Below, piece after piece: positions 72-60,237 of a stretch of 64,000 nt of DNA (the first letter of the stretch is position 1; each line of letters opens with the position of its first letter). The stretch comes from Symploca sp. SIO1C2 (GTDB taxonomy: Bacteria; Cyanobacteriota; Cyanobacteriia; Cyanobacteriales; Coleofasciculaceae). Under the pieces are notes generated by a model. It did not search any database. It saw nothing but the letters and a program-made list of their open reading frames with translations, and was not told where the DNA came from. The translations under genes were made by a program, and so were the position numbers. The stretch covers positions 1 to 64,000 of the forward strand of contig JAAHFP010000033.1 of the NCBI GenBank assembly GCA_010672925.1, written 5' to 3'.

Positions 72-186
72 CCCCAGCTTCCTCAGCTCCCCCAGCTTCC
101 TCAGCTCCCCCAGCTCCCCCAGCTCCCTCAGCTCCCCCAGCTCCCCCAGCTCCCCCAGCTCCCTCAGCTCCCTCAGCTCCTCACAC
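72..186. repeat. STRR tract, CAGCTCCCC/CAGCTTCCT units
   Basis: Tandem 9-base units alternating CAGCTCCCC, CAGCTTCCT and CAGCTCCCT. The same unit forms the long tract at 11.9-12.2 kb and, on the opposite strand, the tract at 46.84-46.95 kb. It is followed by a TTTTTTCGCTCACCC motif that also lies inside the protein genes at 16.4 kb and, slightly changed, at 41.6 kb. An open reading frame crosses the tract but encodes only a low-complexity APPAPSAPP pattern, so I do not call a gene. I see nothing else in bases 1-229. Confidence 0.85.
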
Positions 187-229
187 CCCCACACCTTTTT
201 TCGCTCACCCCCTGCCACCTGCTTTACTA

Positions 230-32555: not shown

Positions 32556-33971
32556 TCAAAAAGGTAGTTCATAGCCTTTGTACACCAACTCATGCCGCAG
32601 AGTTACCACAGACAAAGCTTTCATCTCTTTGTCACGCTGAGACTCAATCTTCTTCAGTTTGTTCCCCATTTTATCTCTTAGCCCCAGAGCTTTTAATAAT
32701 TCTTTAACCTTCTGGCAGGAAATGTCTGTACGAGTAGGTTCAGCAAAGATCGCTTTGAAAGTTTCGTACTGTGAGTCACTTAGGTTGTAGGGATTTTTGG
32801 CTTTACTAAACCACTGGTGTTGAAATCTTTCTTCTAGCTCCTGTGCTTTCTGCTCAGCTGTTTTTGATAATTCTGGCAGATTTAGAAACACATATAGCTT
32901 ATTCATCGCTCTATAAGCTTGAGCCCCGTACCAAAGGGAGTCAGGGGAGTCAAGGTTTTGGTATAGACTTTGTACTTGCTGATAGTAAGACAATGCTTTA
33001 TGATACTTTTGGGAAGATGTTAGAACTTCTCCCATTGCTTCAAGAGTTCTAGCTTCCCCGAAACTATAGCCAATTTCTCGATATAATTCCCTTGCCTGTT
33101 GGTAATACTCCAATGCTTGGTCTGGCTGTTCACGGGAATAATACAATTTACCAATAATCCGGAGGGTTTTTGCTTCGTTTAACCAGTCTCCAATTCTTTT
33201 GTATAATTCCAGTGCATCTTCATAGTTTTTTAAGGCTTCCTTAGGTTCATCTTGCAGCTCTTGTTGTACTTTGCCGATAGTTCTTGTGATTTTCGCTAAA
33301 AGCCCAGTATCTTGCTTGAGTTCTTGAGCGGCGACATTGAGAGCTTGTAAAGCTATATCTCCTTGCTTAGTTTGTAAAGCCAATTGTCCTTGCCAAAAAC
33401 AAATCCCTCCTTTAGCTAATCCAGTAACTCGTTCAGAGTCTACCTGCTCCATTAAGATATTTACTAAAGATTCTAGTTCAGTATAAGAAAAGGAAGCATT
33501 CCACTTGGCTGCTATCTTCCACAAGTGTTTGGTAGCCTCCATTCGGTCATTGCTTACAATCAAATGATAGAGCCATTCAATGCGATCCATTGGCTCATCA
33601 CCGGAGGAAAAATATTTAGCAGCTAGCTTCGAGAGGCTGAGGAATTTTTCAGGCTCTCTGTTAAATAGATCTTCTAATATCCATTTTCGGTTAAATTTCT
33701 GGATGCGACAATATTGTATCTGTGGTATTGTTTCCACAAAATCAGAAGTTATCAATTGATCATAAAGTTTGTCAAAATCAGCTTTTAAATTGGGAAGCAG
33801 TGCCCTTAAAATATCTTGATTGAACCAGTGTGGAATAGCTGCTGCACGTAAAATTTGATACAAATTAGCATCTTTCTTCAAACAATTCTGTAACTGAGCA
33901 TCATGAATCAACCTAGCTCTTGCTTCAGGCGTTTGTGCATTAGCCAACAAAGAAAGTAAATTATTGCTCAT
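32556..33971 (-). CDS. TPR-repeat protein, downstream half of a split STAND-like module
   Basis: A 471-residue protein. The N-terminal third is helical without a known motif. Residues about 185-390 hold tetratricopeptide-like repeats (ALKNYEDALELYKRIGDW, ALEYYQQARELYREIGY, KALSYYQQVQSLYQNL). The C-terminal part (about 400-471) may be a small helical domain. The start overlaps the end of the upstream gene by 11 bases, so the two are probably coupled. Together they have the order N-terminal adaptor, NTPase-like, TPR, as in single-chain STAND proteins such as the one at 58-60 kb. I infer a split signalling or defence protein; no effector domain is visible. Confidence 0.75.
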   Translation of the reverse strand: MSNNLLSLLANAQTPEARARLIHDAQLQNCLKKDANLYQILRAAAIPHWFNQDILRALLPNLKADFDKLYDQLITSDFVETIPQIQYCRIQKFNRKWILEDLFNREPEKFLSLSKLAAKYFSSGDEPMDRIEWLYHLIVSNDRMEATKHLWKIAAKWNASFSYTELESLVNILMEQVDSERVTGLAKGGICFWQGQLALQTKQGDIALQALNVAAQELKQDTGLLAKITRTIGKVQQELQDEPKEALKNYEDALELYKRIGDWLNEAKTLRIIGKLYYSREQPDQALEYYQQARELYREIGYSFGEARTLEAMGEVLTSSQKYHKALSYYQQVQSLYQNLDSPDSLWYGAQAYRAMNKLYVFLNLPELSKTAEQKAQELEERFQHQWFSKAKNPYNLSDSQYETFKAIFAEPTRTDISCQKVKELLKALGLRDKMGNKLKKIESQRDKEMKALSVVTLRHELVYKGYELPF

Positions 33972-35220
33972 AATTCTCTTGTCTTGTCTCGGCTAAGAGT
34001 TTTAATGAATTAGCAACGTTTGCAGGATGCCCTTTATTTGCATTAACAGCCTCCTCAACCTCCTCTCGACTCAGATGCAGCCCTCGCTCTTGACAGTATT
34101 GATACCACGCTGCCACATCCCAAATTTCCTGTAAATAAAGATTTTCACAGTAATCATCCCATTCTACTGTAGCTTGTGGTACCGAATCTCCAGCAATGAC
34201 AACAGCTAATCGAGGTGTAGCGATCGCACCTAAGAGAAAATCTCCTGTCATCCAATCCTGTAATTCGTTATTAGCTTCTTCAAACTCATTCAAAAAAATC
34301 ACCACCTGCTGATTGAGCTGTCTTAAGTCAGTGAAGAAAGCTTGAGTTACCTCTGTCCATAGATGACTAAGCTGCTTTCTATAAGGGTTATTTCTATAAT
34401 CCTCCAGATCTATTTGCTCTGGCAGATATTTTAAAAATTCTTCTCGCTTCTGCCAGTAGTTTTTTTCTGTTATTTCTAGATTGGGAAAATACTGGCTTCC
34501 TAGTCGCACACTGACACTATCCAACAGATGCCTACGCCCTTTACGAGCAGCGACTTGGAGAGAAATAGGAATACAATGCATCTCCAGTTCTGAAGAATAT
34601 TTTTCCACAAATTTTTTCCATAATCTTCTTCTGCCAAACCCTACAGGAGCCTGAATCAGCAAGATTTTGGGAGTTTGTTGCCGAATCATTTGTTCCAACA
34701 GTTGTAATTCTTTAGTGCGGTTTGCCAGAAACACTGGCTTGCCCACAGCTGGGGGAAGATTATTGGAGTAAGTGAGTTGAACTGGTTGCTCCCTTGGTTG
34801 TAGTTGCTTAGATTTTTCGGATCGTTTGCTCTCCCACTCTTGATCCAACCGTTCTATATTCCTGGTTTTGTCCTTTGACCATAAGGCTAGGGTGAAATTC
34901 CAGATATCCGAACCCCGTTGCTGTACCCGATTATCTTCTAAAATCCCAAGGAAGTCTTTCATCATGTTAAGGGCTTGCCGGATTTGATCCTTAGTAAGCT
35001 CACCTGGATAGTTATCCTTTTGGAGCAATTCTGCTAAAAATCTGAGCTTGGTTTCAACTATCAGCTTAGGACGAGCCGAATTCTCAGATTCCCAACGATA
35101 CGTGATGCTCTTTTCAAGATGCTCAAACCCCTCCAACTCGTAATTGACAAACCCAAGCAATGCTTCCAACAGGCGAAGGGCTCTCTTTTTTGGTTTAGCT
35201 CCAGTGCTAGTTTTTGGCAT
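33961..35220 (-). CDS. STAND-like ATPase with degenerate P-loop
   Basis: A 419-residue protein. The N-terminal about 150 residues (RALRLLEALLGFVNYELEGF, GELTKDQIRQALNMMKDFLG, RGSDIWNFTLALWSKD) are clearly related to the N-terminus of the 58-60 kb NB-ARC protein. The following domain has the layout of an NTPase (FLANRTKELQLLEQMI, then a P-loop-like APVGFGRRRLWKKF, and VVIFLNEFEE at the Walker B place). The Walker A lysine is replaced by Arg and the Walker B acidic core is NEFEE, so ATP hydrolysis is doubtful. It is the first gene of a pair with the TPR protein. It may be an inactive or regulatory member of the STAND group. Confidence 0.72.
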   Translation of the reverse strand: MPKTSTGAKPKKRALRLLEALLGFVNYELEGFEHLEKSITYRWESENSARPKLIVETKLRFLAELLQKDNYPGELTKDQIRQALNMMKDFLGILEDNRVQQRGSDIWNFTLALWSKDKTRNIERLDQEWESKRSEKSKQLQPREQPVQLTYSNNLPPAVGKPVFLANRTKELQLLEQMIRQQTPKILLIQAPVGFGRRRLWKKFVEKYSSELEMHCIPISLQVAARKGRRHLLDSVSVRLGSQYFPNLEITEKNYWQKREEFLKYLPEQIDLEDYRNNPYRKQLSHLWTEVTQAFFTDLRQLNQQVVIFLNEFEEANNELQDWMTGDFLLGAIATPRLAVVIAGDSVPQATVEWDDYCENLYLQEIWDVAAWYQYCQERGLHLSREEVEEAVNANKGHPANVANSLKLLAETRQENYEQ

Positions 35221-36170: not shown

Positions 36171-36483
36171 CGATTACTCCTCTGTGTAAAAAAAAAATCT
36201 GTTAAATATAGCTTATTAGGTCAGATATAGCTGGCTAGATCGATTTTGTTGGTAATGTGGCTCAATTCCCTGGGAAAATTCTGGCGATGGAACCACAGAG
36301 GCTTAAAGTTTACAGAGGGTTTATAGGCGCACAACTATCCCATTATCTAATAATAGCACCAAACAACAGCTGGATGATAGCTTACAGGCAAGATGCGAAG
36401 TTCCACAAAAAACTGATGAATCAATGGACTCGATGAAGCAAACCTTACCTACCACCTACCACCTAACACCTACCACCTAACAC
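36171..36483. repeat. Gap with CCTACCACCTAACA STRR next to the cyclase stop
   Basis: The last about 50 bases (36436-36492) are tandem CCTACCACC/CCTAACACC units that run into the final codons of the cyclase gene (stop at 36484). The remaining 36171-36435 shows nothing I can assign. Confidence 0.75.
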
Positions 36484-38475
36484 CTACCACCTATCTACCT
36501 TCCTACCAACTAGAAAGTAAGTACTCATTTCTCCCTTCCCTTTCACCGTAATCTGACCTCTGTCCTCGAACAAGTATTTATCCCGCAAGTATTTGTAGGT
36601 ACTAGCTGTGAGGTGAATTTTACCAGCTACACCGTGGGACTCCATCCTGCTAGCGGTATTTACTGCGTCACCCCACAAATCATAAATAAACTTACTAACA
36701 CCAATCACCCCTGCCACTACGGGTCCCGTATTAATGCCAATGCGGATGTGGAACTCTTGTCCTCTTTCTTGGCTCAACTCTGCTACTGCTGCTTGCATAT
36801 CCATTGCCATTTCCGCGATAGCTTCAGCATGATTTGGTTGTATCTTTGGTAAACCTCCCACCACCATATAGGCATCCCCAATAGTCTTGATTTTTTCCAA
36901 GCCATGTTGTCCTGCTAGTTTGTCAAACTTGGAGAAAATTGCATTGAGTAACTCGACTAATTCTGGTGCAGAAATCTTGGCAGAGAGCTCGGTAAAGCCG
37001 ACAATATCAGCAAACAAAACCGTGACTTCAGCAAAATTTTCCGCAATTGTACCTTGTTCGTTTTTCAGGCGTTCTGCAATAGGTTTGGGTAAAATATTGA
37101 GTAATAGGCGTTCAGTTTGTTCCTGTTGATAGCGCAGTGCCTCTTCAGCTTGCTTGCGTTTGATCCACTGTCCCAGCTGGCGACCAATGGCTGCCATTAT
37201 TTTCAGTAAATCTTCATCAGTCTGTTGAGCATCGCTACTAAACAGAGTTAGTACTCCCAAAATTTTTTTATCTGCTAGCAGGGGAATACCAAACGCTTGT
37301 TGCAATCTCGTTGAGGAAATTGGTCTGGAATCGGAGAATTCCGAGTCATACATAATATTAGTAAGCCCATGAATGGAATGAGTTACCCAAACACGACCAG
37401 GTAATCCTAAACCAGGGGAAAATGTTGTATGCTGGCTATGATTCATCAAGTTAGGGAGAGTTATTGACGGCTTGACCCAAGATGCAATACATCTTAGTGC
37501 GATTGAGTCCCCTTTACCCTCATTCTCTTTCCCAATCTCTTCTAACGATTTATCTGGTTCCCAAATTTCCCCTATATCCCATTCCAGTTTTTCACAAATA
37601 GCTTCTAAGATTTTCGGAGTTGCCTCCGATAAAGTGGCAGATTCCGACATGATATGGGTAATGGCGTACTGTACTGCCAATCGCTTTTGAGTACGTTGGC
37701 GCTCAGTAATATCTCGACCTATATAGATAAAATTTTCTAAGCCTTCTGTCTCCGTTTGAATGGCTGAGCAGGAAAACGCGATCGCTAATTTTTCTCCAGA
37801 TTTGGTCTGACAAAGAACTTCTACATTATTTAAAACTTCATTAAACAAAAGGGAGGAATGACTGGATTGGTTGATAAAAAATTTGTCCGCAATAATCATC
37901 GAGATTGACTGGCCAACTAATTCTGCTTCACTGTAACCAAATAAGTCTTGAGCAGCTTGATTGACAGTCTTGATAATTCCCGATGGCTTAGTTACTAATA
38001 AAGCATCTGCCATTGATGAGATGATTTTATCAACATAATCCTTGGCGGCAACTAAAGCACTGGATAAGAGATTAGTTTCATTAATTCTTTGGATTAAACT
38101 TTGCTCCAAAGTCATCCTTTCCGTAACTTCTTCAAGAACGATTATTAATTTCTTTTCTACAGGTTCTTCATCAAGATTATTAAAAATATGGATATCAAAG
38201 TAAATAGGGGGCTGAGTATTTGGTGTTCTAGCAATTCCTTTGAGCTCAAAACTCTCTTGTTCCCCTTCAATAATCTCTGTCAGGATGTCTTCAACTCCGA
38301 ACAGTTCAGGAAACCCAAGACGTATATCTTGTCCTTTACTCAGGTCATCTGGACAATCAACAAATCGTTGCACTCCAACAGAGGTCTCGATAATGTTAAA
38401 GTCCTGATCAATCTCTAAATATTCCCCTCGATTGGGAGCAAGGACTGATAGGAGTTTATTTAATAGGGCATTCAT
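36484..38475 (-). CDS. PAS-GAF class III adenylate/guanylate cyclase
   Basis: A 663-residue sensor cyclase. Domain order: an N-terminal heme-NO-binding-associated/PAS-like region (residues about 1-120), a coiled linker (VTERMTLEQSLIQ), a PAS domain with PAC-like end (about 145-265), a GAF domain (about 285-440) and a class III cyclase domain (about 465-655). The metal-binding Asp is in VLFADIVGFTELS and the second in KTIGDAYMVVGG. EKIKTIGD and LWGDAVNTASRME carry the Lys and Asp positions associated with ATP rather than GTP preference, so an adenylate cyclase is likelier. It is the last gene of the operon, 6 bases after the GTPase gene. Confidence 0.92.
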   Translation of the reverse strand: MNALLNKLLSVLAPNRGEYLEIDQDFNIIETSVGVQRFVDCPDDLSKGQDIRLGFPELFGVEDILTEIIEGEQESFELKGIARTPNTQPPIYFDIHIFNNLDEEPVEKKLIIVLEEVTERMTLEQSLIQRINETNLLSSALVAAKDYVDKIISSMADALLVTKPSGIIKTVNQAAQDLFGYSEAELVGQSISMIIADKFFINQSSHSSLLFNEVLNNVEVLCQTKSGEKLAIAFSCSAIQTETEGLENFIYIGRDITERQRTQKRLAVQYAITHIMSESATLSEATPKILEAICEKLEWDIGEIWEPDKSLEEIGKENEGKGDSIALRCIASWVKPSITLPNLMNHSQHTTFSPGLGLPGRVWVTHSIHGLTNIMYDSEFSDSRPISSTRLQQAFGIPLLADKKILGVLTLFSSDAQQTDEDLLKIMAAIGRQLGQWIKRKQAEEALRYQQEQTERLLLNILPKPIAERLKNEQGTIAENFAEVTVLFADIVGFTELSAKISAPELVELLNAIFSKFDKLAGQHGLEKIKTIGDAYMVVGGLPKIQPNHAEAIAEMAMDMQAAVAELSQERGQEFHIRIGINTGPVVAGVIGVSKFIYDLWGDAVNTASRMESHGVAGKIHLTASTYKYLRDKYLFEDRGQITVKGKGEMSTYFLVGRKVDRW

Positions 38476-38481
38476 GCCAAT

Positions 38482-38988
38482 TTAAAGCATTCCGTAAGCT
38501 AATTTTTGAAAAATTTCGTCAACGTGGGAGCCAGTTTTTGCAGAAGTTGAATAGGTAGTTATTACTTGTTCTATATCTTGAAATTTAGGTATTTTAGCCA
38601 ATTTTTCTTCATCAATTAAATCATATTTGTTCAGGGCAAAAATCATGACCCCATTGGGATTAACATCCAAAAATAACTGAGCACGCTCTGGAAGATTATC
38701 AATAGTTTCCTGGCGAGTAACATCACCAACGACTATAGCACCACTAGCTCCTTTTAAGTAACTTGGAGCTATAGCTTTAAATTTAGTATGACCTTCTAAG
38801 TCCCAAATTAATAATTGTACTTTCTGTGTTGTTGACTCAGTTAATTCAACAGTTTTACGAGAAATTTTAACTCCTACTGTTGAAAGATACTGGTCACTAA
38901 ACTGACGTTCTACAAAGCGCCGAATTAGGCTAGTCTTACCCACCCCAAAGTCACCTATCAAGCAAATTTTTTTAGAAATTGTTGCCAT
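38482..38988 (-). CDS. Rab/Ras-like small GTPase
   Basis: A 168-residue single-domain GTPase. All G motifs are present: G1 GDFGVGKTS, switch I Thr in LSTVGVK, G3 LIWDLEGHTKFKA (DxxG, with Glu where Gln is common in eukaryotic Rab), G4 ALNKYDL (NKxD) and G5 TSAKTG. It has no C-terminal cysteine for prenylation. Bacterial members of this group switch between GDP and GTP states, often with roadblock/LC7 partners. The neighbours fit: the upstream OmpA-family gene has a roadblock-like segment (2-base gap) and the downstream gene is a cyclase (6-base gap). Confidence 0.93.
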   Translation of the reverse strand: MATISKKICLIGDFGVGKTSLIRRFVERQFSDQYLSTVGVKISRKTVELTESTTQKVQLLIWDLEGHTKFKAIAPSYLKGASGAIVVGDVTRQETIDNLPERAQLFLDVNPNGVMIFALNKYDLIDEEKLAKIPKFQDIEQVITTYSTSAKTGSHVDEIFQKLAYGML

Positions 38989-38990
38989 AA

Positions 38991-41849
38991 TTATTTATTT
39001 TTAGTGGGTATAAACGGTTCAAAGATGACACACCTGTGCAACTCCATTGACTGTGAGTTATCCCAACCAGGAGGAGGTTCGGTTGTTCCTGAAATGTCTT
39101 GTAGTCTCTCAGGAGCAATACCCTGCTGGATCAGGATGTCTTGTACTGTTTTAGCACGCTTTTTGGCTAAAGACCGGTCTACATCCAGGGGACGCAAGTC
39201 GCTAGGGTCACTATAACCTGTTAATCTCAGATGAACTTTGGGATACTGCTCAAGGAATTCCTGAATCTTGGGAAGTTTCTGGGATAACTCTGCTGGTTTT
39301 AATTCAGCTGAATCCACTTTGAAGTAGAGCCTGGTCTCAATTTTTGGTAAGTTGATCTTGGTATTGTTGTTGACCGACTTGACTCCCGGAATCTCCTCAA
39401 ATGTCTGGGTAAGATCTGGAGAATCTCCCTCAGCAATAATTACATTGCCCTCCAGGGTTACTACCCCATCTACATACTTTGCCGAAATATCAACCCCCTC
39501 GATTTGGTTCAGGTTATAGGCGACTCGTTCTACCTCTTCTACTGCCAATACTGGATCCGGAGGCAAATCGAGAACTACAATATGATTATCTACTTCCAAG
39601 GCGGGAGCTATTTCCTTGGCAATTTTTTCTACTTTCCGACTCATATACCCATTTGGTACTCTTCCTCCTAGCTTCATGGTCTTTTGATTAGCATCAACTT
39701 TCAGTTGATAAACAGATACTTCTGGAGCAGAATAGGCGAGAGCAAGTTCAATATCCGACTCCAGGTTGCGGTTAATACCTCGTTTGTGCCAATAAATGCC
39801 CAAGGGTACGCATAATAAGGCAAAAGCAGCTAAGGCGCTGGCGAGGAAAGCAACTGGTAGTTTCTTCTTCTCCTCTAATCGTTCGTAAATTAAACTTTCT
39901 ACTAGGGAATGTACCTGAGGAGGAATAGTTTCAGGATCCCCCTCAAAGGATTTAATTTCTTCACCATAATTTTCAATAATTTTTCTCAGGGTATCCCGGA
40001 TTTTCTGGATTAACAGCTGTGGTGGTTCTCCATCAACTACCACTGCCATGTAACAGTATCCTGCTGCTTCTAAAATAATCCTGGAAGTACCATAATAGAT
40101 TTCGTCAAGTTCTGAGAGATTGCCTGAGTTAGCCATACAGTCACTAGCAAAGCTGCGGATAGCAGTTAGCATACCGGCCACCATATCTGACTCTAGCTTT
40201 TCCCCCTCTGAGGGTTGTATGTCTGAAATTACCAAACCAGAGCCTTTATGAACTAAGAAAATGGCTCTAATAAGGGAGTGCATCGTCTCCTTCAGGAGCA
40301 ACTCTGCCTCAGAAACTCCCCGCACCTTGGCGCGAACCTTGCGAGATACAGCATCTACACTGAATGCATGTTCAATTTGTTCGTTAATCGCCCGGAGTTC
40401 CGAACCGATATAGGAAGAAATTGTACTGCCAATCACAGGATAGAGAGCATCCACCATGGCATCTCTTTCTAGGAGAACTTGCTCTCTGATAGCTTCTGCC
40501 ATTTCTGGTGCAAGGGAATTGGCAATTTCCTTAGGAGATTTACTAACCTGTTGGGAAATGGCGATGGGAATTGCTGCTGCCAGAGCTTCTCCCATTGCTA
40601 CTCTATTCTTGGAAGTATTTTGCTCAATTAGCTCATCAATCCGCTCATAAATTTTTTGCTCAAGTGCTCTAAGTCTCGGTTCAAGTTTTTCTGGATGTAC
40701 TAATTTCTCGAGGAGTCTCATTATCTCCTCCAAATCATCAGTAGGCAAATCCTCAGCTGGAGTTTCCTGCTCCTGAACTACTAGAGTTGAGTTGTCAGCT
40801 TCTTGCTTAGCTGGCTCACTAGTTTCAGCTTCTTGCTTAGTTGGCTCAGTGGTTTCAGCTTTTTCAATCTGCTGTAGCGTAGTTTTGGGTTCTTGGTTAT
40901 TTAGGAAAGCTAAAGAGTTTTCCTGTTGATTAGTATTAGTTAAGTATAGTGTGGAGGTATACTTCAACAGACTCCTTACCTCTGGAGTAATCTTGGAATT
41001 CTGTTTGGTAAAGGTAGCTTTACCTGAGGAAGTAAGGGACTGACTCTTGAGCTTGGTTGTTTGTTCTGGGCTATCAGTTGGCGACGGCTTTCCTAAATGT
41101 GGAGAACCATTATTAGCTTCATTCCCTCCCTTTCCATTGTTTTGAGCTGCTACTGAAATGTTTTCATCCTGTGGGATGATGGCTTCAGAGCTTGGTTGCT
41201 CTGGGGAATTAGCTGAGTCTAGCTCCCGTAGTAACTTCAACAGCTTCTGGGCTTCACGGTCTGGTAGTTGTAAATCTTGCTTACTATCTTCCTCTGAAGC
41301 AGGAAGGGACTGACTCCTAAGTCTGGTTACCGGTGCTTCTTGGCTATAGTCATCTGGCAGAGGAGTTTCTAAATGGTTAGGAGTATGATTAATCGAGTGA
41401 TCCAAATATGAAGTGGAATTTCCATTCTCCGAGTCCCCGTGTCCTTGTCTCCCCGCGTCTGAGGTGAGATTTCCATTCTCCGAGTCCCCGCTTTCCCAAA
41501 TATCCACGTCTGAGGTGAGATTTCCATTCTCCGAGTCCCCGTGTCCTTGTGTCTCCGAGTCTGAGGTGGAATTTCCATTCTCCGAGTCCCCAATTTCCCA
41601 AATATCCGGGTCTGCTGACTCGTTTTCCCACTCCTTTTTTCCCTCACCCTCCTGTTGCTGAGGCATATCTGTGCTGAATTGGTCTATAGAACTAGATTCT
41701 TGGAGGTCATCTTCTAGTGTAATTTGCCAATCATCTAGGGGTTCTTCTGCTTGGAGATTGAGCTCTCTTGACTTTAAATCAACACCCAACTGCTGCTCTA
41801 ACTCAGCCTGATTTTCCTTTGCCACAGTCATGACCCTAATCTCCGTCAC
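38991..41849 (-). CDS. OmpA-family membrane protein with roadblock-like and BON-like domains
   Basis: A 952-residue protein. Residues 1 to about 370 are a Glu/Asn/Ser-rich disordered region, including repeats of GDSENGNLTSD. Then comes a helical region, a roadblock/LC7-like segment (about 515-640: LIRAIFLVHKGSGLVISDIQ ... AAGYCYMAVVVDG), one membrane helix (about 667-690, LASALAAFALLCVPLGIYW), two BON-like repeats (about 705-835) and a C-terminal OmpA peptidoglycan-binding domain (about 845-945: RLTGYSDPSDLRPLDVDRSLA). The order predicts a cytoplasmic N-terminus with GTPase-regulator-like domain, and a periplasmic part bound to peptidoglycan. The roadblock call is by pattern only. It lies directly upstream of the GTPase gene. 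Confidence 0.85.
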   Translation of the reverse strand: MTEIRVMTVAKENQAELEQQLGVDLKSRELNLQAEEPLDDWQITLEDDLQESSSIDQFSTDMPQQQEGEGKKEWENESADPDIWEIGDSENGNSTSDSETQGHGDSENGNLTSDVDIWESGDSENGNLTSDAGRQGHGDSENGNSTSYLDHSINHTPNHLETPLPDDYSQEAPVTRLRSQSLPASEEDSKQDLQLPDREAQKLLKLLRELDSANSPEQPSSEAIIPQDENISVAAQNNGKGGNEANNGSPHLGKPSPTDSPEQTTKLKSQSLTSSGKATFTKQNSKITPEVRSLLKYTSTLYLTNTNQQENSLAFLNNQEPKTTLQQIEKAETTEPTKQEAETSEPAKQEADNSTLVVQEQETPAEDLPTDDLEEIMRLLEKLVHPEKLEPRLRALEQKIYERIDELIEQNTSKNRVAMGEALAAAIPIAISQQVSKSPKEIANSLAPEMAEAIREQVLLERDAMVDALYPVIGSTISSYIGSELRAINEQIEHAFSVDAVSRKVRAKVRGVSEAELLLKETMHSLIRAIFLVHKGSGLVISDIQPSEGEKLESDMVAGMLTAIRSFASDCMANSGNLSELDEIYYGTSRIILEAAGYCYMAVVVDGEPPQLLIQKIRDTLRKIIENYGEEIKSFEGDPETIPPQVHSLVESLIYERLEEKKKLPVAFLASALAAFALLCVPLGIYWHKRGINRNLESDIELALAYSAPEVSVYQLKVDANQKTMKLGGRVPNGYMSRKVEKIAKEIAPALEVDNHIVVLDLPPDPVLAVEEVERVAYNLNQIEGVDISAKYVDGVVTLEGNVIIAEGDSPDLTQTFEEIPGVKSVNNNTKINLPKIETRLYFKVDSAELKPAELSQKLPKIQEFLEQYPKVHLRLTGYSDPSDLRPLDVDRSLAKKRAKTVQDILIQQGIAPERLQDISGTTEPPPGWDNSQSMELHRCVIFEPFIPTKNK
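41400..41640. repeat. In-frame ~57-63-bp repeats inside the OmpA-family gene
   Basis: Four units of TTTCCATTCTCCGAGTCCCC with variable inserts, translated on the minus strand as GDSENGNLTSD. The unit resembles the dispersed STRR (ATTCTCC and CCCCGTGTCC) and ends at CCTTTTTTCCCTCACCC, the same kind of motif as at 200 and 16470. Confidence 0.85.
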
Positions 41850-41950
41850 CTGCCATCTATAAACTCCCCCAGCACAGTTACTCGCCTCAGAATTATCATC
41901 CCTCGATAATTGAGTAGTAGTTGGCTCGATTGTAGTATGAGGGTGAGATT

Positions 41951-42469
41951 TTACTCCAGGGTTTGACTTTGTTCTAATAGCAGCAGAGCATTCTTTCCCT
42001 GACTATCGTCAGTCGCTGATTGAATGGCTTCTTTGACCCCAGGAACCAGTGCAGTCCCTTGTAGTCTCAAACCCATCTCCATCAAAATGTCTGCCATCTC
42101 GCTCTTTGAGGTTTTGTCCTCTTTGAGAAGACTAAATCTCCTCTCCAACTCCTGCAACACCTGATTTTTGAGGGCAAGGATATCTTGCTCCAATTTGCCT
42201 GAAGTAACTGAGATTTCCTGCTTGAGAGAGGTTGTCTGTTTATATACTATTTCATCGAGTGCTTCAATTGTCTTAGAAAAGTTCTTGTCGTTACGTTCTA
42301 GTTGCTCAAGACGAGAGCGAACCTCAGCTTCAAAGGTTGACAAATTAGCTTCTAGCTGCTCAAAGCGAGTTTCATATTCCCGCTGATGAGAGCCAAAGAT
42401 TATATCACGTATCTTGTCAATGTTCTCTATTCTATCCCGGGCTGGGTTTTGTGGTGTAATGTCACTCAT
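41951..42469 (-). CDS. Coiled-coil protein, first gene of the GTPase operon
   Basis: A 172-residue hydrophilic protein (MSDITPQNPARDRIENIDKI...) with heptad-rich segments between about 30 and 120 (ETRFEQLEANLSTFEAEVRSRL) and a helical C-terminus. No known catalytic motif. It lies about 100 bases upstream of the OmpA-family gene on the same strand, with no terminator visible between, so it is probably the first gene of the operon. A structural or adaptor role is inferred. It has no signal peptide, so it is cytoplasmic. Confidence 0.8.
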   Translation of the reverse strand: MSDITPQNPARDRIENIDKIRDIIFGSHQREYETRFEQLEANLSTFEAEVRSRLEQLERNDKNFSKTIEALDEIVYKQTTSLKQEISVTSGKLEQDILALKNQVLQELERRFSLLKEDKTSKSEMADILMEMGLRLQGTALVPGVKEAIQSATDDSQGKNALLLLEQSQTLE

Positions 42470-53383: not shown

Positions 53384-56300
53384 ATGTATGATATTGTCTG
53401 GCTCCTAGCTTGTGCTGGTTTGGTCTTCCTGATGCAACCGGGCTTTATGTGTTTGGAGTCAGGGCTAACTCGCTCAAAAAACAGCATCAATGTTGCTGTT
53501 AAAAACTTGGCGGATGTTGGTATTTCCGTAATTTTATTTTGGGCATTTGGTTATGCTCTGATGTTTGGGGCATCTTGGGTTGGATGGATTGGCACCAAAG
53601 GTTTCTTTATTGATCTCGATGCTGACCCCAAGCTAGCGGCTTTCTTTATTTTTGAAGCGATGTTTTGCGGTACTGCTACTACTATTATCTCAGGAGCAGT
53701 AGCAGAACGATTGCGCTTCAGTTGTTACTTGCTCATTGCCCTATTAGTTTCCGGTATTATTTATCCTATTTTTGGTCATTGGGCTTGGAATGGCGCTGAG
53801 ACAGGGAGCTTTACTGGCTGGTTGGGGAAGCTGGGCTTCGTTGATTTTGCTGGTTCGGCAGTGGTGCACTGTATTGGGGGTTGGGTTGCTTTAGCAGCCT
53901 TGTTGGTTATTGGACCCCGTACTGGTAGATTTACGAGTAATGGGCGAGCACAAAAAATCCACGGCTCTAATATGCCCTTTTCTGTCCTAGGGGTGATGCT
54001 GTTGTGGTTGGGTTGGTTGGGGTTTAATGGTGGTAGTACCCTAGCCTTAAATGAACAAATTCCTGGGATTATTGTCCATACCATCCTTGCTGGTGCTGGT
54101 GGCATGTTAACTACCGTAGCAATCGGTTGGTTCCAACGCAAACTACCAGAGGTAGAATTATTAATTAACGGCTCAATTGCTGGATTGGTATCAATTACTG
54201 CCTCTTGCCATGCGGTAAAAACTCCAGAATCCTTACTGATTGGTGCTATTGGTGGAGCAGTAATGCTCTTTGCTAACTATTGGATCGAACGTTGGCGCAT
54301 TGATGATGGAGTAGATGCGGTAGCGATTCACGGAGTTGCAGGGGTTTGGGGCATCTTGGCCGTGGCTTGGTTTGGAGACCCAGAGATACTAGGAACCGGT
54401 TTGAGTCGGCATAGCCAGCTGTTAGTGCAACTATTGGGAATTATCGTTGCTTTTGTTTGGGCTTTTGGTTTAACTTACCTAGTGCTGTCGATTACCAATC
54501 GCTTCTTTCCCCTGCGGGTTTCTCTTGAAGATGAAGAAATGGGTCTGAATGTTTCCCAACATCGAGCGAAAACGGAAGTTTATCAACTGTTTCAAGTAAT
54601 GGATAAGCAGGCAGAAACCAGGGATTTTAGCTTGCGAGTGCCGGAGGAGCCATTTACTGAGGTAGGAAAAATAGCTCACCGTTACAATCAGGTAATGGAC
54701 TCTTTAGAAGAGTACGCCAATCAACTACAAGAATTCAATGCTACTCTAGAGCGAACAGTTGAACAACGAACAGCAGAACTTGCGGAAGCCAATGCAGAGT
54801 TACAACGTTTAGATCGACTCAAAGATGAGTTTCTTGCTAATACTTCCCACGAATTAAGAACTCCCCTCAACGGTATTATCGGTATTGCTGAATCTCTGGT
54901 TGATGGTGTTACCGGTTCTCTATCTCCCCAAACTTGTTCTAATTTAAACCTGATTGTTTCTAGTGGCAGGCGTTTATCCAATCTAGTAAATGATATTCTA
55001 GATTTTTCCAAAATGTTCCACAAGAATATTGAGCTACAACTCAAACCAGTGGGACTGCGAGAAATTGTTGAAGTAGTACTTAAGCTTAGCCAACCGCTGA
55101 TTGGTTATAAAGAATTACAACTAATTAATGGAATTCCTGATTACCTTCCTCCAGCTAATGCTGACGAAAATCGCTTACAGCAAATTCTCTACAACCTAAT
55201 TGGTAATGCGATTAAGTTTACTAAATCTGGCACTGTCGAAATTTCAGCAGTAGTTGTGGAATTGGGAGGGGGGGATGAGGAGACACAGGAACGCGGGGAC
55301 GCGGGGAAGCCGAGACAAGAGAGATCAGAAGACGAGGGAGACATTCCCAATTCCCAATTTCCAATTCCCAATTCCCAATTCCCAAACAACCAACAACAAA
55401 CAACAAATAACCAACAACAATTAGCTATTTCCGTTTATGATACTGGTATCGGTATTCCAGAAGAGAATTTAGACCGCATTTTTGAATCCTTTGAACAAGC
55501 TGATGGTTCTACTGCCCGTGAATATGGTGGTACTGGCTTGGGTTTAGCAGTAACCAGAAAGCTAGTTGAGCTTCACGGAGGAGAAATTAAGGTTGAGTCT
55601 ACTGTAGGGGAAGGTTCCTGCTTCAGTTTTACTTTACCTATGGCCACTAGTCAGCCGTCAGTTATTACCCCTCAATCGTCACAATTATCATTAGTTAGTC
55701 CGCAGACTTCAATCCCAACAACGATAGATAACGGACTGCAAACTAATAACAAACAACTAATAAGCAATAACCAACAACTAATAACTAACAACCAAGAACC
55801 AACAAGTCATCAATTCAAGGTTTTGATTGTGGATGATGAACCAGTAAATTTACAGGTGTTAGTGAATCATCTGTCTCTAGAAAATTATGCGATCGCGCGA
55901 GCAATCAATGGCATGGAAGCACTGGAGTTAATTGAGAATGGCTTTCAACCTGACTTACTGTTACTCGATGTGATGATGCCAAAAATGACTGGCTATGAAG
56001 TCTGTCACAAGATTCGGGAGAAATTTCCGGCTACGGAATTACCGGTTTTGATGTTAACTGCAAAAAACCGAGTTTCGGATGTTGTGGAAGGATTGACTGC
56101 TGGTGCTAATGATTATCTGAGTAAACCGGTTTCTAAAAAAGAACTACTAGCCAGAATTAAAACTCAGTTGCAACTGTCTCAAATCAATGCTGCCTACGGT
56201 CGTTTTGTGCCTCGTCAATTTCTCCAATTATTGCAAAAAGAAAGTATTCTAGATGTTCAACTAGGGGATAATGTACAGCAGGAAATGTCAGTGCTGTTTT

Positions 56301-57001
56301 CTGATATTCGCTCCTTTACGACCCTATCAGAAAGGATGACACCCCAGGAAAATTTCCAATTTATCAATTCCTTTCTTTCTCGTATGGAGCCTGCCATTAT
56401 CGACAATCGTGGCTTTATTGATAAATACATCGGTGATGCGATTATGGCACTGTTTAGTGGAGGGGCTGACGATGCTGTCAAAGCTGGGATTGCGATGTTG
56501 CATCAGCTAGCTGAATACAATCAACATCGCCTCCAATCAGGCTATCAACCGATTAAAGTAGGGATTGGCATCAATACAGGGGATTTGATGTTAGGTACAG
56601 TTGGTGGACAGTCTCGGATGGATGGTACTGTAATTAGCGATAATGTTAATATAGCCTCCCGGATTGAAGGGTTGACTAAAAAATATGGAGTTTCGATGCT
56701 CATCTCTCACCAAACTTTTAGCTCCTTAAAATATCCTAACGAATATGTTTTTCGCTTTATTGCTCAAGTCAGAATGAAAGGTAAGTCAGAATTGGTGAGT
56801 CTCTTTGAAGTCTTTGATGCTGATGATCCGAAAATTAAAGAGAAAAAAATGCTTACGAAAACCAATTTTGAGAAGGCTTGTTTGCTCTACTATCAGCGTC
56901 GTTTTAGTAAAGCCGCACAACTGTTTAAAGATGTATTGAATATTATACCAGAGGATAAAATCACTCAAATTTATCTGAAACGCTGTTCAGAACAATGTTA
57001 G
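53384..57001 (+). CDS. AmtB-like ammonium sensor/transporter fused to histidine kinase, receiver and class III cyclase
   Basis: A 1205-residue fusion. Residues 1 to about 375 form an Amt/Rh channel-like domain with many membrane helices ([15 protein letters not shown] at the start; twin-His positions in [11 protein letters not shown] and [12 protein letters not shown]). Then a linker-coiled coil (about 395-470), HisKA with phospho-His in [13 protein letters not shown] (about 487), and HATPase (N box IGNAIKFT, G1 YDTGIGIP, G2 GGTGLGLAV). A receiver follows with Asp in [10 protein letters not shown] (about 862) and SKPVS, then a class III cyclase with both metal Asp residues ([13 protein letters not shown] and [11 protein letters not shown]). 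Ammonium binding may drive phosphorelay and cAMP. Between N and G1 boxes a repeat-derived insertion ([17 protein letters not shown]) has been accepted in frame; a second lies before the receiver. Confidence 0.93.
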
Positions 57002-58365: not shown

Positions 58366-60237
58366 TTGGAAATTCTGGAAGACTTGCGGGAACAGAAGCG
58401 AGGTTCCGATAACTGGCATTTTAAGCTTAAACTGTGGCACAAGTACCAGGATCACGATGCCAATTTAGAGAGGTTTGACGAAGAATGGGATAATCGTAGA
58501 CCAGCAAAATCGAAAGCTGCTGCTAAGGAGAGTAATTCTAAGAAGACACTTCCACCACCAACAGTTTATGAGAACCTTGGGCGTAAGGGTATTCTTAACC
58601 AAGAAGAATTTATCGGACGTCGGGCAGAACTTGACCAATTACATCGATTGTTGCAAGAAAATACCCAAGTAGCAATCGCGGCAACGGTTACTGGTATGGG
58701 GGGAGTGGGTAAAACGGAATTAGCAATTCAGTATGCCAGGGAGCAGTTACCAACTTATCCGGGGGGAGTTTGTTGGTTATCCGCTAGGAATTTTGCTGTC
58801 GGGTTAGTCGAATTTGCCCGTCCCCATTTTTTCCCTAATGTCAATTTAGAGCATTTGTCTCCAGAAGAGCGAGTTACCTATTGCTGGCAGCATTGGGTTG
58901 AAGGGGATGTTTTGCTGGTGCTGGATGATGTGACTAATTACGAGAAGCAGGTAAAGCCTTATTTGCCGGAATCATCCCGGTTTAAACTGCTGCTTACCAC
59001 TAGGGAAAATTTGGGTGATAAGTTTGTCTGTTTGAATTTGGAGGTACTCAAGCCCCTAGCAGCAATGGCTTTATTACAATCCCTGGTAGGGAGGAAGCGA
59101 CTGTTACAGGAACCTTGGCTTGCGAGAAAACTCTGTAAATGGCTGGGTTATTTGCCTCTGGGCTTGGAGTTGGTGGGATGTTATCTTAAGCAGGAAGAGG
59201 ATTTATCTCTAGCAGAATTACTCGAAGAGTTACAAAATGAGCGACTAGCAGCAGAAGCTTTGGTAGAAACTCACTCTGGCATGACGGCTCAACTGGGGGT
59301 TGCTGCTGCTTTTGAGTTGAGTTGGAAACGGTTAAACCAAAATGCCCAAGTTGTGGCCTATTTACTGAGTTTATTTGCCCTTGCTCCTATTCCTTGGTCA
59401 TTGGTGGAAAGTGCAGCAAAGAGTAAATCTACTAAAGAATTGAAGCAGGCTAGACGCACTCTTGTCCAGCTGAATTTGCTGAAGCGCACGGATAAGAATA
59501 CTTACCAACTGCATCAACTGATTCGGGAGTTCTTTTGCTACAAGGGGGAAGAGTCTGGTGAGGCAAAGGAGTTAAAGCGCGGGTTAGCAACAGCGATGGT
59601 GACAGTGGCAGAGCAAATTCCTCAAGAGATTACCCTAGAGTTGGTAAAGTCTTTTGAGCCTGCGATACCCCATCTGGAAGAAGTAGCGAGGAAATTAACA
59701 GAGTTTCTTACTAATGAAGATTTAATCTGGCCTTGTACTGGTTTAGGGAAGTTTTATCAAGGTCAAGGCTTCTATGAGTTGGCAGAACCTTGGTTGCAGC
59801 GATGTAAAGCATTGGCAAAAACTCGCCTGGGTAAAGAACATCCTGATTTTGCTACTAGTCTTAACAACTTAGCTGGATCATACCAATCCCTTGGATGCTA
59901 CAGTGATGCTGAATCATTGTATAAGCAAGCGATTGAAATCAATAAGCGCTCTTTACCTGAAGACAATCCTTCATTGCCTATCTACCTCAACAGCTTAGCT
60001 GTACTATACAAATCCCTTAGACGCTACAGTGAAGCTGAAACATTGTATCTGGAAGCCTTGATAATTTTGTATCGCTCTTTAGGGTCAGAGCATCCTAATA
60101 CTGTTACAGTGGAGAACAGTTTTGTCGAATTCTTGATGCAAGTAGTCAGTGAGGGTCAGGAGTCGCTGCTGTCTGAGCATCCTTGGATGCAGAAATTGCT
60201 GGTGATAATTAAGGAGGAAGGGGAATTGGGAATGTAG
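58366..60237 (+). CDS. NB-ARC/TPR STAND ATPase (main part after the TGA)
   Basis: 623 residues in the same frame as the preceding piece; the start shown is a TTG (MEILEDLREQK) and is not secure. After the tail of the N-terminal domain come EFIGRRAELDQLHRLLQ and the NB-ARC P-loop TVTGMGGVGKTELAIQYARE, Walker B LLVLDDVTNY, the RNBS-B-like LLLTTRE, GLPL-like LGYLPLGLELVG and a winged-helix region. C-terminal TPRs follow (FATSLNNLAGSYQSLGCY, LPIYLNSLAVLYKSLRRY, ATLYLEALIILYRSLG). STAND proteins of this type act in signalling or antiviral defence; the target is unknown. Its last residues (GELGM) run into an STRR, so the natural end may be lost. Confidence 0.87.
   Translation: MEILEDLREQKRGSDNWHFKLKLWHKYQDHDANLERFDEEWDNRRPAKSKAAAKESNSKKTLPPPTVYENLGRKGILNQEEFIGRRAELDQLHRLLQENTQVAIAATVTGMGGVGKTELAIQYAREQLPTYPGGVCWLSARNFAVGLVEFARPHFFPNVNLEHLSPEERVTYCWQHWVEGDVLLVLDDVTNYEKQVKPYLPESSRFKLLLTTRENLGDKFVCLNLEVLKPLAAMALLQSLVGRKRLLQEPWLARKLCKWLGYLPLGLELVGCYLKQEEDLSLAELLEELQNERLAAEALVETHSGMTAQLGVAAAFELSWKRLNQNAQVVAYLLSLFALAPIPWSLVESAAKSKSTKELKQARRTLVQLNLLKRTDKNTYQLHQLIREFFCYKGEESGEAKELKRGLATAMVTVAEQIPQEITLELVKSFEPAIPHLEEVARKLTEFLTNEDLIWPCTGLGKFYQGQGFYELAEPWLQRCKALAKTRLGKEHPDFATSLNNLAGSYQSLGCYSDAESLYKQAIEINKRSLPEDNPSLPIYLNSLAVLYKSLRRYSEAETLYLEALIILYRSLGSEHPNTVTVENSFVEFLMQVVSEGQESLLSEHPWMQKLLVIIKEEGELGM

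What the first reader, a model, noticed from the sequence alone, without database searches (positions are those of the whole stretch)
36484..42469. Operon joining a Rab-like GTPase, a roadblock-like/BON/OmpA envelope protein, a coiled-coil protein and a PAS-GAF cyclase
The three downstream genes are separated by only 2 and 6 bases, so they are probably cotranscribed and their products functionally linked. The large protein has a roadblock/LC7-like segment facing the cytoplasm by topology prediction, one membrane helix, and periplasmic BON and peptidoglycan-binding OmpA domains. Bacterial Ras-like GTPases are known to work with roadblock proteins (as MglA/MglB do). The inference is an envelope-tension or cell-wall sensor that acts through a small GTPase to control cAMP. 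The combination as one operon is, to my knowledge, not well described.
Basis: partly seen in the sequence, partly recalled or inferred. Interest (0 to 1): 0.78.

Follow-up and report, generated by a model that had tools for sequence, protein, structure and literature searches.

The report
Envelope-linked bacterial Rab-like signalling operon
Four neighbouring cyanobacterial genes encode an already described but little-tested signalling set, in which a wall-binding membrane protein probably uses a Rab-like switch protein to control an enzyme that makes cyclic AMP; its previously unassigned inner domain is predicted to share a fold with helper proteins of eukaryotic Rab switches.

Summary
In detail: a minus-strand operon encodes a coiled-coil protein, a 952-aa protein with one membrane helix, BON and OmpA domains, a Rab-like GTPase and a PAS-GAF class III cyclase. 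The combination is not new: it is a "Group 1 Rup" system (Wuichet and Sogaard-Andersen 2014, PMC4316618), described from gene neighbourhoods and then without experimental characterisation. What this work adds: (1) AlphaFold2 plus structure comparison gives the "conserved domain of unknown function" of the OmpA protein a longin/roadblock fold (best match Sec22b longin, Z 13.0; MglB 10.8). Pfam and profile comparison do not detect it, and the topology fits longin at least as well as roadblock. (2) In 244 cyanobacterial genomes the domain and the GTPase each occur in 31; 30 are the same. (3) The cyclase begins with a PAS domain missed by Pfam plus a helix with a near-invariant glutamine. This unit heads kinases, cyclases, GGDEF and SpoIIE enzymes, and both glutamines of the helix recur in a rhizobial operon of the same layout. 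(4) Class III cyclases are the second commonest output among 89 examined. The path longin/roadblock domain to GTPase to cyclase is inferred; no interaction was modelled or measured.

The parts
41951..42469 (-). Gene 1: cytoplasmic coiled-coil protein, 172 aa
   Evidence: ORF; no hydrophobic segment; homologue within 1 kb upstream of the OmpA gene in 69 of 80 named loci. Coiled coil is read from the sequence and from the 2014 description, not from a predictor
38991..41849 (-). Gene 2: 952-aa longin/roadblock-TM-BON-OmpA protein
   Evidence: ORF; Pfam; structure model of residues 435-650
39900..40310 (-). Longin/roadblock-like domain, residues 514-650 of gene 2 (model residues 80-216)
   Evidence: AlphaFold2 model m2c144deafa00; Foldseek and VIA-align 2 matches
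39795..39851 (-). Membrane helix, residues 667-685
   Evidence: Kyte-Doolittle maximum 2.31
39570..39767 (-). BON domain, residues 695-760 (best of two stretches)
   Evidence: PF04972 1.6e-8
39099..39326 (-). OmpA-like peptidoglycan-binding domain, residues 842-917
   Evidence: PF00691 7.8e-8; aligns with Pal and YiaD, Asp and Arg of the binding site retained (role of the residues recalled)
38482..38988 (-). Gene 3: Rab-like small GTPase (Rup), G3 = DLEGH
   Evidence: Pfam Ras 6.1e-29; best-scoring solved chains are Rabs; motifs
36484..38475 (-). Gene 4: output protein, PAS-helix-PAS-GAF-class III cyclase, 663 aa
   Evidence: ORF, Pfam, PDB sequence alignments
38125..38475 (-). N-terminal PAS domain of gene 4, residues 1-117, not recognised by Pfam
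   Evidence: AlphaFold2 model m5154dbdea1b7, mean pLDDT 83.5; PAS/LOV matches
38029..38124 (-). Helix residues 118-149 with motif Q125-x-L-x-Q129-R
   Evidence: Q125 in 131 and Q129 in 130 of 135 homologue rows; helix in model
36508..37044 (-). Class III cyclase catalytic domain, residues 478-656
   Evidence: PF00211 5.1e-68; metal-binding Asp pair and adenine-specifying Lys/Asp align with mammalian adenylyl cyclases 5 and 9 (roles recalled)

Best explanation
This is a Group 1 Rup signalling system with an adenylyl cyclase as output. Shown by sequence: the four parts, their order and their joint occurrence. Inferred: the OmpA-family protein sits in the inner membrane, binds peptidoglycan with its OmpA domain and holds its longin/roadblock-like domain in the cytoplasm just before the membrane helix. 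There it works as platform and nucleotide-state regulator of the Rab-like GTPase, as MglB does for MglA and as longin complexes do for Rabs, with the coiled-coil protein as scaffold. The GTPase passes the signal to the N-terminal PAS domain and glutamine helix of the cyclase and so sets the cAMP level; that helix may also help the GTPase active site. The PAS-helix unit is a portable Rup-response module, and other enzymes carrying it, linked or unlinked, are further outputs. Identity as a Rup system about 0.93; the signal path as worded about 0.5.
For: Gene content and order match the published Group 1 Rup neighbourhood. The GTPase has Ras-type G motifs without the G3 glutamine. Order conserved: of 80 named loci centred on the OmpA protein, coiled coil upstream in 69, GTPase downstream in 68, and of those 68 an output with the PAS-helix unit next in 61. 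244 genomes: domain in 31, GTPase in 31, both in 30. Longin/roadblock fold. The N-terminal PAS heads HK, cyclase, GGDEF and SpoIIE outputs. Q129 is kept in 9 of 9 divergent type-2 proteins and both glutamines in the cyclases of two rhizobial plasmids. Of 55 PAS-helix places in the 244 genomes, 37 lie within 8 kb of a GTPase and 18 do not.
Against: No interaction was modelled or measured. The fold rests on one model with mean pLDDT 67 (block means 70-92 over residues 91-216 except 57 at 141-150; 56 at 81-90; 34-66 before). Profile comparison with MglB-type proteins is no better than shuffles (4 of 60 shuffles higher, 7 of 60 as high). If the helix simply supplied the missing glutamine to the GTPase, it might be expected to be lost where the GTPase has its own; it is not (13 of 13 such pairs keep both glutamines). 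In 10 of 80 loci no GTPase lies beside the OmpA gene. In the 51 stretches chosen by GTPase, 14 have no OmpA gene, and 11 of 31 OmpA-GTPase pairs lack an adjacent output. One genome of 244 has the domain without the GTPase (G227), and one GTPase and output without the domain (G141).
Confidence: 0.55

Rival explanations
1. The GTPase works mainly with the output's PAS-helix unit, and the longin/roadblock-like domain is only a dimerisation or docking scaffold that places the complex at the membrane without acting on nucleotide state.
For: GTPase plus PAS-helix protein occur as a pair away from the OmpA gene (L059, L061), and with a GGDEF output in a genome where the domain was not found (G141). 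The published model also pointed to the glutamine of the output protein as a possible GAP residue.
Against: Domain and GTPase share 30 of 31 genomes each and are usually adjacent, often 2 bases apart.
Confidence: 0.3
2. The genes are only neighbours, or cotranscribed without a shared pathway; the cyclase answers to its own PAS and GAF ligands.
For: The second PAS and the GAF domain could bind ligands of their own; the output enzyme changes from locus to locus; linkage alone proves no interaction.
Against: The same N-terminal unit is kept while the output class changes: 14 changes on a quick tree, the class 'no enzyme found' included (HK label 8, cyclase 6, GGDEF 2; well-supported branches alone force 5, 3 and 1). 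Gene order recurs in rhizobia.
Confidence: 0.08
3. It is an MglA/MglB-type pair in which MglB has been fused to an OmpA protein.
For: Shared superfamily fold, MglB of the MglA complex at Z 10.8.
Against: GTPase G3 is DLEGH, not TVPGQ or GTPGQ as in MglA groups; no Robl_LC7 match; no significant profile match; the genome has three separate Robl_LC7 proteins elsewhere.
Confidence: 0.07

Closest known systems
Group 1 Rup systems (Wuichet and Sogaard-Andersen 2014, PMC4316618)
   Same: Rup GTPase lacking the G3 glutamine, coiled-coil protein, protein with conserved domain + membrane helix + OmpA, output protein with an invariant N-terminal glutamine
   Different: Output here is an adenylyl cyclase, whereas the paper names GGDEF/EAL fusions or histidine kinases as typical. 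[quoted passage not shown] here the domain is predicted to have a longin/roadblock fold
MglA/MglB (Myxococcus, Thermus)
   Same: Small GTPase with a partner of the longin/roadblock superfamily
   Different: Different G3 motif, no significant sequence similarity of the partner, partner fused to membrane and peptidoglycan-binding domains
Actinobacterial conservons (CvnA-D)
   Same: Four-gene set of kinase, roadblock protein, unknown protein and small GTPase, compared with Rup systems by the 2014 paper
   Different: MglA-family GTPase, free-standing roadblock protein, histidine kinase with its own membrane helices, no OmpA protein
Eukaryotic Rab-longin complexes (TRAPP, Mon1-Ccz1, Fuzzy-Inturned)
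   Same: Rab-like GTPase with longin-fold partner; chains of such entries are among the structural matches of the domain
   Different: Bacterial, membrane protein with a peptidoglycan-binding domain, enzyme outputs such as cyclases; no common descent shown for the domain
YfiBNR of Pseudomonas
   Same: OmpA-like envelope protein coupled to a second-messenger cyclase (recalled; only starts of abstracts seen)
   Different: No GTPase, GGDEF output, periplasmic relay protein (partly recalled)

Membership tests
Group 1 Rup system | Single-domain Ras-superfamily GTPase under 240 aa with DxxG in G3 | tested here: met
   168 aa, Pfam Ras 6.1e-29; G3 Asp in 113 of 114 distinct homologues, window DLEGH
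Group 1 Rup system | Lack of the G3 glutamine | tested here: met
   His67 in the window; across 114 distinct homologues His 55, Ser 32, Asn 12, Gln 11, Glu 3, Arg 1, so not absolute
Group 1 Rup system | Neighbouring coiled-coil gene and gene for unknown domain + membrane helix + OmpA | tested here: met
   80 named loci
Group 1 Rup system | Output protein whose N-terminal region has an invariant glutamine | tested here: met
   Q129 in 130 and Q125 in 131 of 135 rows; 121 and 122 of 126 distinct rows. Which residue the paper's logo shows could not be checked, as figures are not held
Group 1 Rup system | Falls in the Rup Group 1 clade of the GTPase tree | not tested
   The paper's sequences were not at hand
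MglA family | G3 motif TVPGQ or GTPGQ | tested here: not met
   DLEGH (motifs)
Roadblock/LC7 (Pfam PF03259) | Match to the family profile | tested here: not met
   No match for the window domain or any of 15 alignment members, nor at this place in the own-genome search
Roadblock/LC7 (Pfam PF03259) | N-terminal helix packed beside the C-terminal helix | tested here: inconclusive
   Helix 80-88 is modelled at low confidence; MglB of the MglA complex aligns over model residues 91-200 only
Longin domain | Five-stranded sheet with two C-terminal helices and no N-terminal helix (definition from PMC10933270) | tested here: inconclusive
   Sec22b aligned 90..216, Z 13.0, rmsd 2.7, 119 aligned, a range that includes helix 210-215; the model ends at residue 650, right after that helix, and a low-confidence helix precedes the first strand
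Class III adenylyl cyclase | Catalytic domain with metal-binding Asp pair and adenine-specifying Lys and Asp | tested here: met
   Pfam; residues aligned with adenylyl cyclases 5 and 9 (roles recalled). Activity not tested
OmpA-like peptidoglycan-binding domain | Pfam OmpA match and the Asp/Arg pair of the binding site | tested here: met
   (roles recalled); binding not tested

The most novel reading that the evidence does not exclude
Group 1 Rup systems are bacterial Rab-longin cassettes: a longin-fold domain, tethered through the inner membrane to peptidoglycan, acts as exchange factor or activating platform for a Rab-like GTPase, whose GTP form drives a whole set of enzymes (cyclases, kinases, GGDEF proteins) that share one GTPase-reading PAS-glutamine-helix module. 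The 2014 paper found Rab/Ran/Ras/Rho proteins very similar to Group 1 Rup proteins, so this pairing would be a bacterial counterpart, and perhaps the source, of the eukaryotic Rab-longin partnership.
Probability: 0.3. Interest if true: 0.78.

Novelty: new variant of a known kind. Interest (0 to 1): 0.52.

Why it matters
Rup GTPases were proposed in 2014 as the prokaryotic kin of eukaryotic Rab/Ras proteins, and none had been characterised then. A predicted longin/roadblock partner with a wall-binding domain and a recurrent response module give specific interactions to test, and would tie cell-wall state to cAMP, c-di-GMP and phosphorelays in cyanobacteria and rhizobia. If the GTPase reads out through one portable PAS-helix, its targets can be listed in any genome.

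Tried and rejected
Sequence proof that the domain is a roadblock: Pfam on 15 members gave no Robl_LC7; a profile search of solved structures gave one chance hit, E 0.87; hhalign against 16 cyanobacterial Robl_LC7-type sequences gave probabilities of 0.5-0.9 per cent, and 4 of 60 column shuffles scored higher. With type-2 and rhizobial sequences added, the alignment spans 94 columns in register with the fold, but 7 of 60 shuffles score as high. So the fold rests on the model. In making the MglB-type alignment, of 28 loci tried 3 gave no suitable ORF and one gave a wrong 184-aa ORF (L194); 16 of the remaining 24 were used.

Glutamine supplied in trans: tested by asking whether outputs lose the glutamine where the GTPase has its own; no such exchange was seen. 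This weakens that idea but does not exclude it.

Canonical MglA/MglB pair: rejected on the G3 motif and the missing Robl_LC7 match. Phages: the GTPase has no match in 50,697 phage records.

Limits of the counts. The pair counts join every GTPase with every output of the same stretch. The 57-genome set and the 80-locus set overlap (for example L039 and L090), so the output counts use the 80-locus set alone; the 135 PAS rows hold 126 distinct ones and the 116 OmpA-protein rows 104. The 80 loci are the best 80 of 249 confirmed and lean towards close relatives. The three searches of 244 genomes used different E-value limits (0.001, 1e-20, 1e-15).

Not run: complex modelling (single-chain tool), a GTPase tree with the paper's sequences, a search of other phyla beyond plasmid and phage records.
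Full report
Observation. All four ORFs are on the minus strand at the coordinates given, with gaps of 101, 2 and 6 bases. Pfam confirms a Ras-family GTPase, BON and OmpA domains, and PAS, GAF and class III cyclase domains. The best-scoring solved chains for the GTPase are Rabs. The window lies in an 8.67-Mb assembly; the closest named relatives listed by this domain are Symploca sp. SIO2C1 and SIO2E6, 90 and 89 per cent identical.

Already described. The combination is the Group 1 Rup neighbourhood of Wuichet and Sogaard-Andersen 2014 (PMC4316618; abstract, sections 16-18 and passages read). They report a rup gene with a coiled-coil protein, a protein with a conserved unknown domain often followed by a membrane helix and OmpA, and an output protein, typically GGDEF/EAL or histidine kinase, with an invariant glutamine in its N-terminal region. 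[quoted passage not shown] Searches for later work (listings with titles and starts of abstracts, open-licence papers only) showed no experimental study of Rup and no fold assignment of that domain. Most papers of subscription journals are not in that library.

Gene order. In 80 named cyanobacterial loci found by the OmpA protein's domain (best 80 of 249), a coiled-coil gene lies within 1 kb upstream in 69 (9 absent, 2 cut by a stretch end). A GTPase lies within 1 kb downstream in 68 (10 absent or elsewhere, 2 cut). Of these 68, an output with the N-terminal unit follows in 61 (5 absent, 2 cut). Two other sets, chosen differently and partly overlapping, are less clean. In 51 stretches around GTPase hits, 14 have no OmpA gene; of the 37 with one, 31 have the GTPase behind it, and of these 31, 18 have an adjacent output (11 absent, 2 cut). 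In 11 further stretches all 11 have coiled coil and GTPase but only 3 an adjacent output of the window's type; 5 of those 11 were picked as divergent type-2 systems.

Co-inheritance. In 244 evenly drawn cyanobacterial genomes at least 90 per cent complete, the domain occurs in 31, the GTPase in 31 and the output's N-terminal unit in 32. Domain and GTPase share 30 genomes, Fisher p 4e-36; by genus 23 are shared of 23 and 24, p 3e-22. These tests ignore kinship, so the p values are too small, but the 31 genomes with the domain bear 12 family codes.

Outside cyanobacteria. Four of 72,556 plasmid records match the domain, and the same four match the GTPase: one Nostoc, two Rhizobium, one Mesorhizobium. 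The Mesorhizobium plasmid shows a 222-codon gene, an OmpA family protein, a Rab family GTPase and a cyclase in the same order, 6, 11 and 3 bases apart; the Rhizobium CC1099 plasmid, for which no annotation is held there, has the same four ORFs. No phage record matches the GTPase. Other phyla were not searched.

The unknown domain. Residues 435-650 were modelled from 58 sequences: mean pLDDT 67, pTM 0.55; the order from model residue 80 is helix, two strands, helix, three strands, helix, short helix. Foldseek lists 24 solved chains at E 0.001 or better, among them Sec22b, Ykt6, adaptor sigma chains, Rag-Ragulator chains and MglB. By VIA-align 2 all 50 rows shown belong to the longin/roadblock group as I read their titles: Sec22b Z 13.0 (rmsd 2.7, 119 aligned, residues 90-216), MglB in its MglA complex Z 10.8 (rmsd 2.5, 105 aligned, residues 91-200). 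PMC10933270 (passages read) defines longin as lacking the N-terminal helix of the roadblock fold and having a second C-terminal one. The model has that second helix at the end of the construct, so longin fits better, but the weak N-terminal part keeps this open. Sequence profiles do not prove descent.

The output's N-terminus. Residues 1-150 of the cyclase form a PAS domain followed by a long helix (pLDDT 83.5; PAS and LOV matches). Across 135 homologue rows Q125 is kept in 131 and Q129 in 130; in 126 distinct rows 122 and 121. In a second, divergent cyanobacterial subfamily Q129 is kept in 9 of 9 proteins and Q125 in 4 of 9. In two rhizobial cyclases both glutamines align, without a gap from Q125 onwards and with one gap just before it. 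Behind this unit sit different enzymes. Of 89 outputs in the 80-locus set, 50 are histidine kinases, 26 class III cyclases, 4 GGDEF and 9 without a catalytic domain found, of which 3 are cut by a stretch end. One SpoIIE phosphatase occurs in the other set. On a quick tree of 89 rows with many long branches the class changes at least 14 times, 'no enzyme found' counted as a class. Of 55 places with the unit in the 244 genomes, 18 are not within 8 kb of a GTPase, one of them with stops. I looked at 9 of these 18 and at 2 further places beside a GTPase. The 9 unlinked ones are cyclase 4, GGDEF 2, histidine kinase 2 and one stand-alone unit in the window's own genome; the 2 linked ones are a cyclase and a GGDEF protein.

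GTPase chemistry. The G3 glutamine position is His in 55 of 114 distinct GTPases, Ser 32, Asn 12, Gln 11, Glu 3, Arg 1. So its loss is common but not absolute, unlike the 2014 text. Outputs keep both glutamines where the GTPase has its own (13 of 13 pairs), which argues against a simple exchange of one catalytic glutamine.

The window's output. The cyclase domain retains the residues of a homodimeric adenylyl cyclase when aligned with mammalian types 5 and 9 (their roles are recalled). The OmpA domain aligns with Pal, Asp and Arg of the binding site included (roles recalled). No hydrophobic segment was found in the first 60 residues of any of 116 homologue rows; 94 of 116 have one segment in all, 21 two and one three. 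Cytoplasmic placement of the longin-like domain follows from this and from the usual periplasmic place of OmpA domains; it is inference.

Mechanism. Shown: the parts, their order, their joint occurrence. Predicted: the folds. Inferred: peptidoglycan binding, GTPase regulation by the longin-like domain, reading of the GTPase by the PAS-helix, and cAMP as the result. 'Tension sensor' is only one of several possible inputs; wall integrity, attachment or growth state are as likely.

Noticed in passing
window 53384-57001 (+): One 1205-aa ORF joins an ammonium transporter domain (1e-121), histidine kinase, receiver and class III cyclase: a candidate ammonium-sensing cyclase fusion.
   Followed up: no
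window 32556-35220 (-) and 58366-60237 (+): EAD4 (effector-associated domain 4) proteins: one overlapping a TPR-protein gene, one with NB-ARC and TPR domains and a partial EAD4 match; they look like conflict/defence-type NTPase systems.
   Followed up: no
window 41418-41614: A 51/102-base tandem repeat lies inside the N-terminal coding part of the OmpA protein; a 7-base repeat at 36447-36493 covers the end of the cyclase gene.
   Followed up: no
L060 9366-9899 (own genome, contig C172): A second Rup-like GTPase (65 per cent identical, G3 DLEGN) with no coiled-coil or OmpA homologue found within 5.5 kb; a class III cyclase lies about 1.3 kb upstream.
   Followed up: partly
L202-L206, L087, L089: A second, divergent Rup subfamily in cyanobacteria: coiled coil (5 of 7 stretches), about 600-aa OmpA protein with the same domain, GTPase, then a stand-alone 127-135-aa protein and/or a histidine kinase; in L089 the stand-alone protein's relative is fused to a cyclase.
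   Followed up: partly
L127, L134, L157, L167: OmpA proteins of about 1200 aa with the same domain but no coiled-coil or GTPase gene beside them; such genomes may share one GTPase among two OmpA proteins.
   Followed up: no
own genome, contigs C79 and C224 (L177, L187, L196): Three Robl_LC7 (MglB-like) proteins; Ras-family hits lie close by on the same two contigs, so the genome probably has MglA/MglB-type pairs besides the Rup system.
   Followed up: partly
L225 4618-6555: A GTPase directly followed by a PAS-unit GGDEF protein in a genome where the longin/roadblock-like domain was not found: a possible minimal Rup pair.
   Followed up: partly
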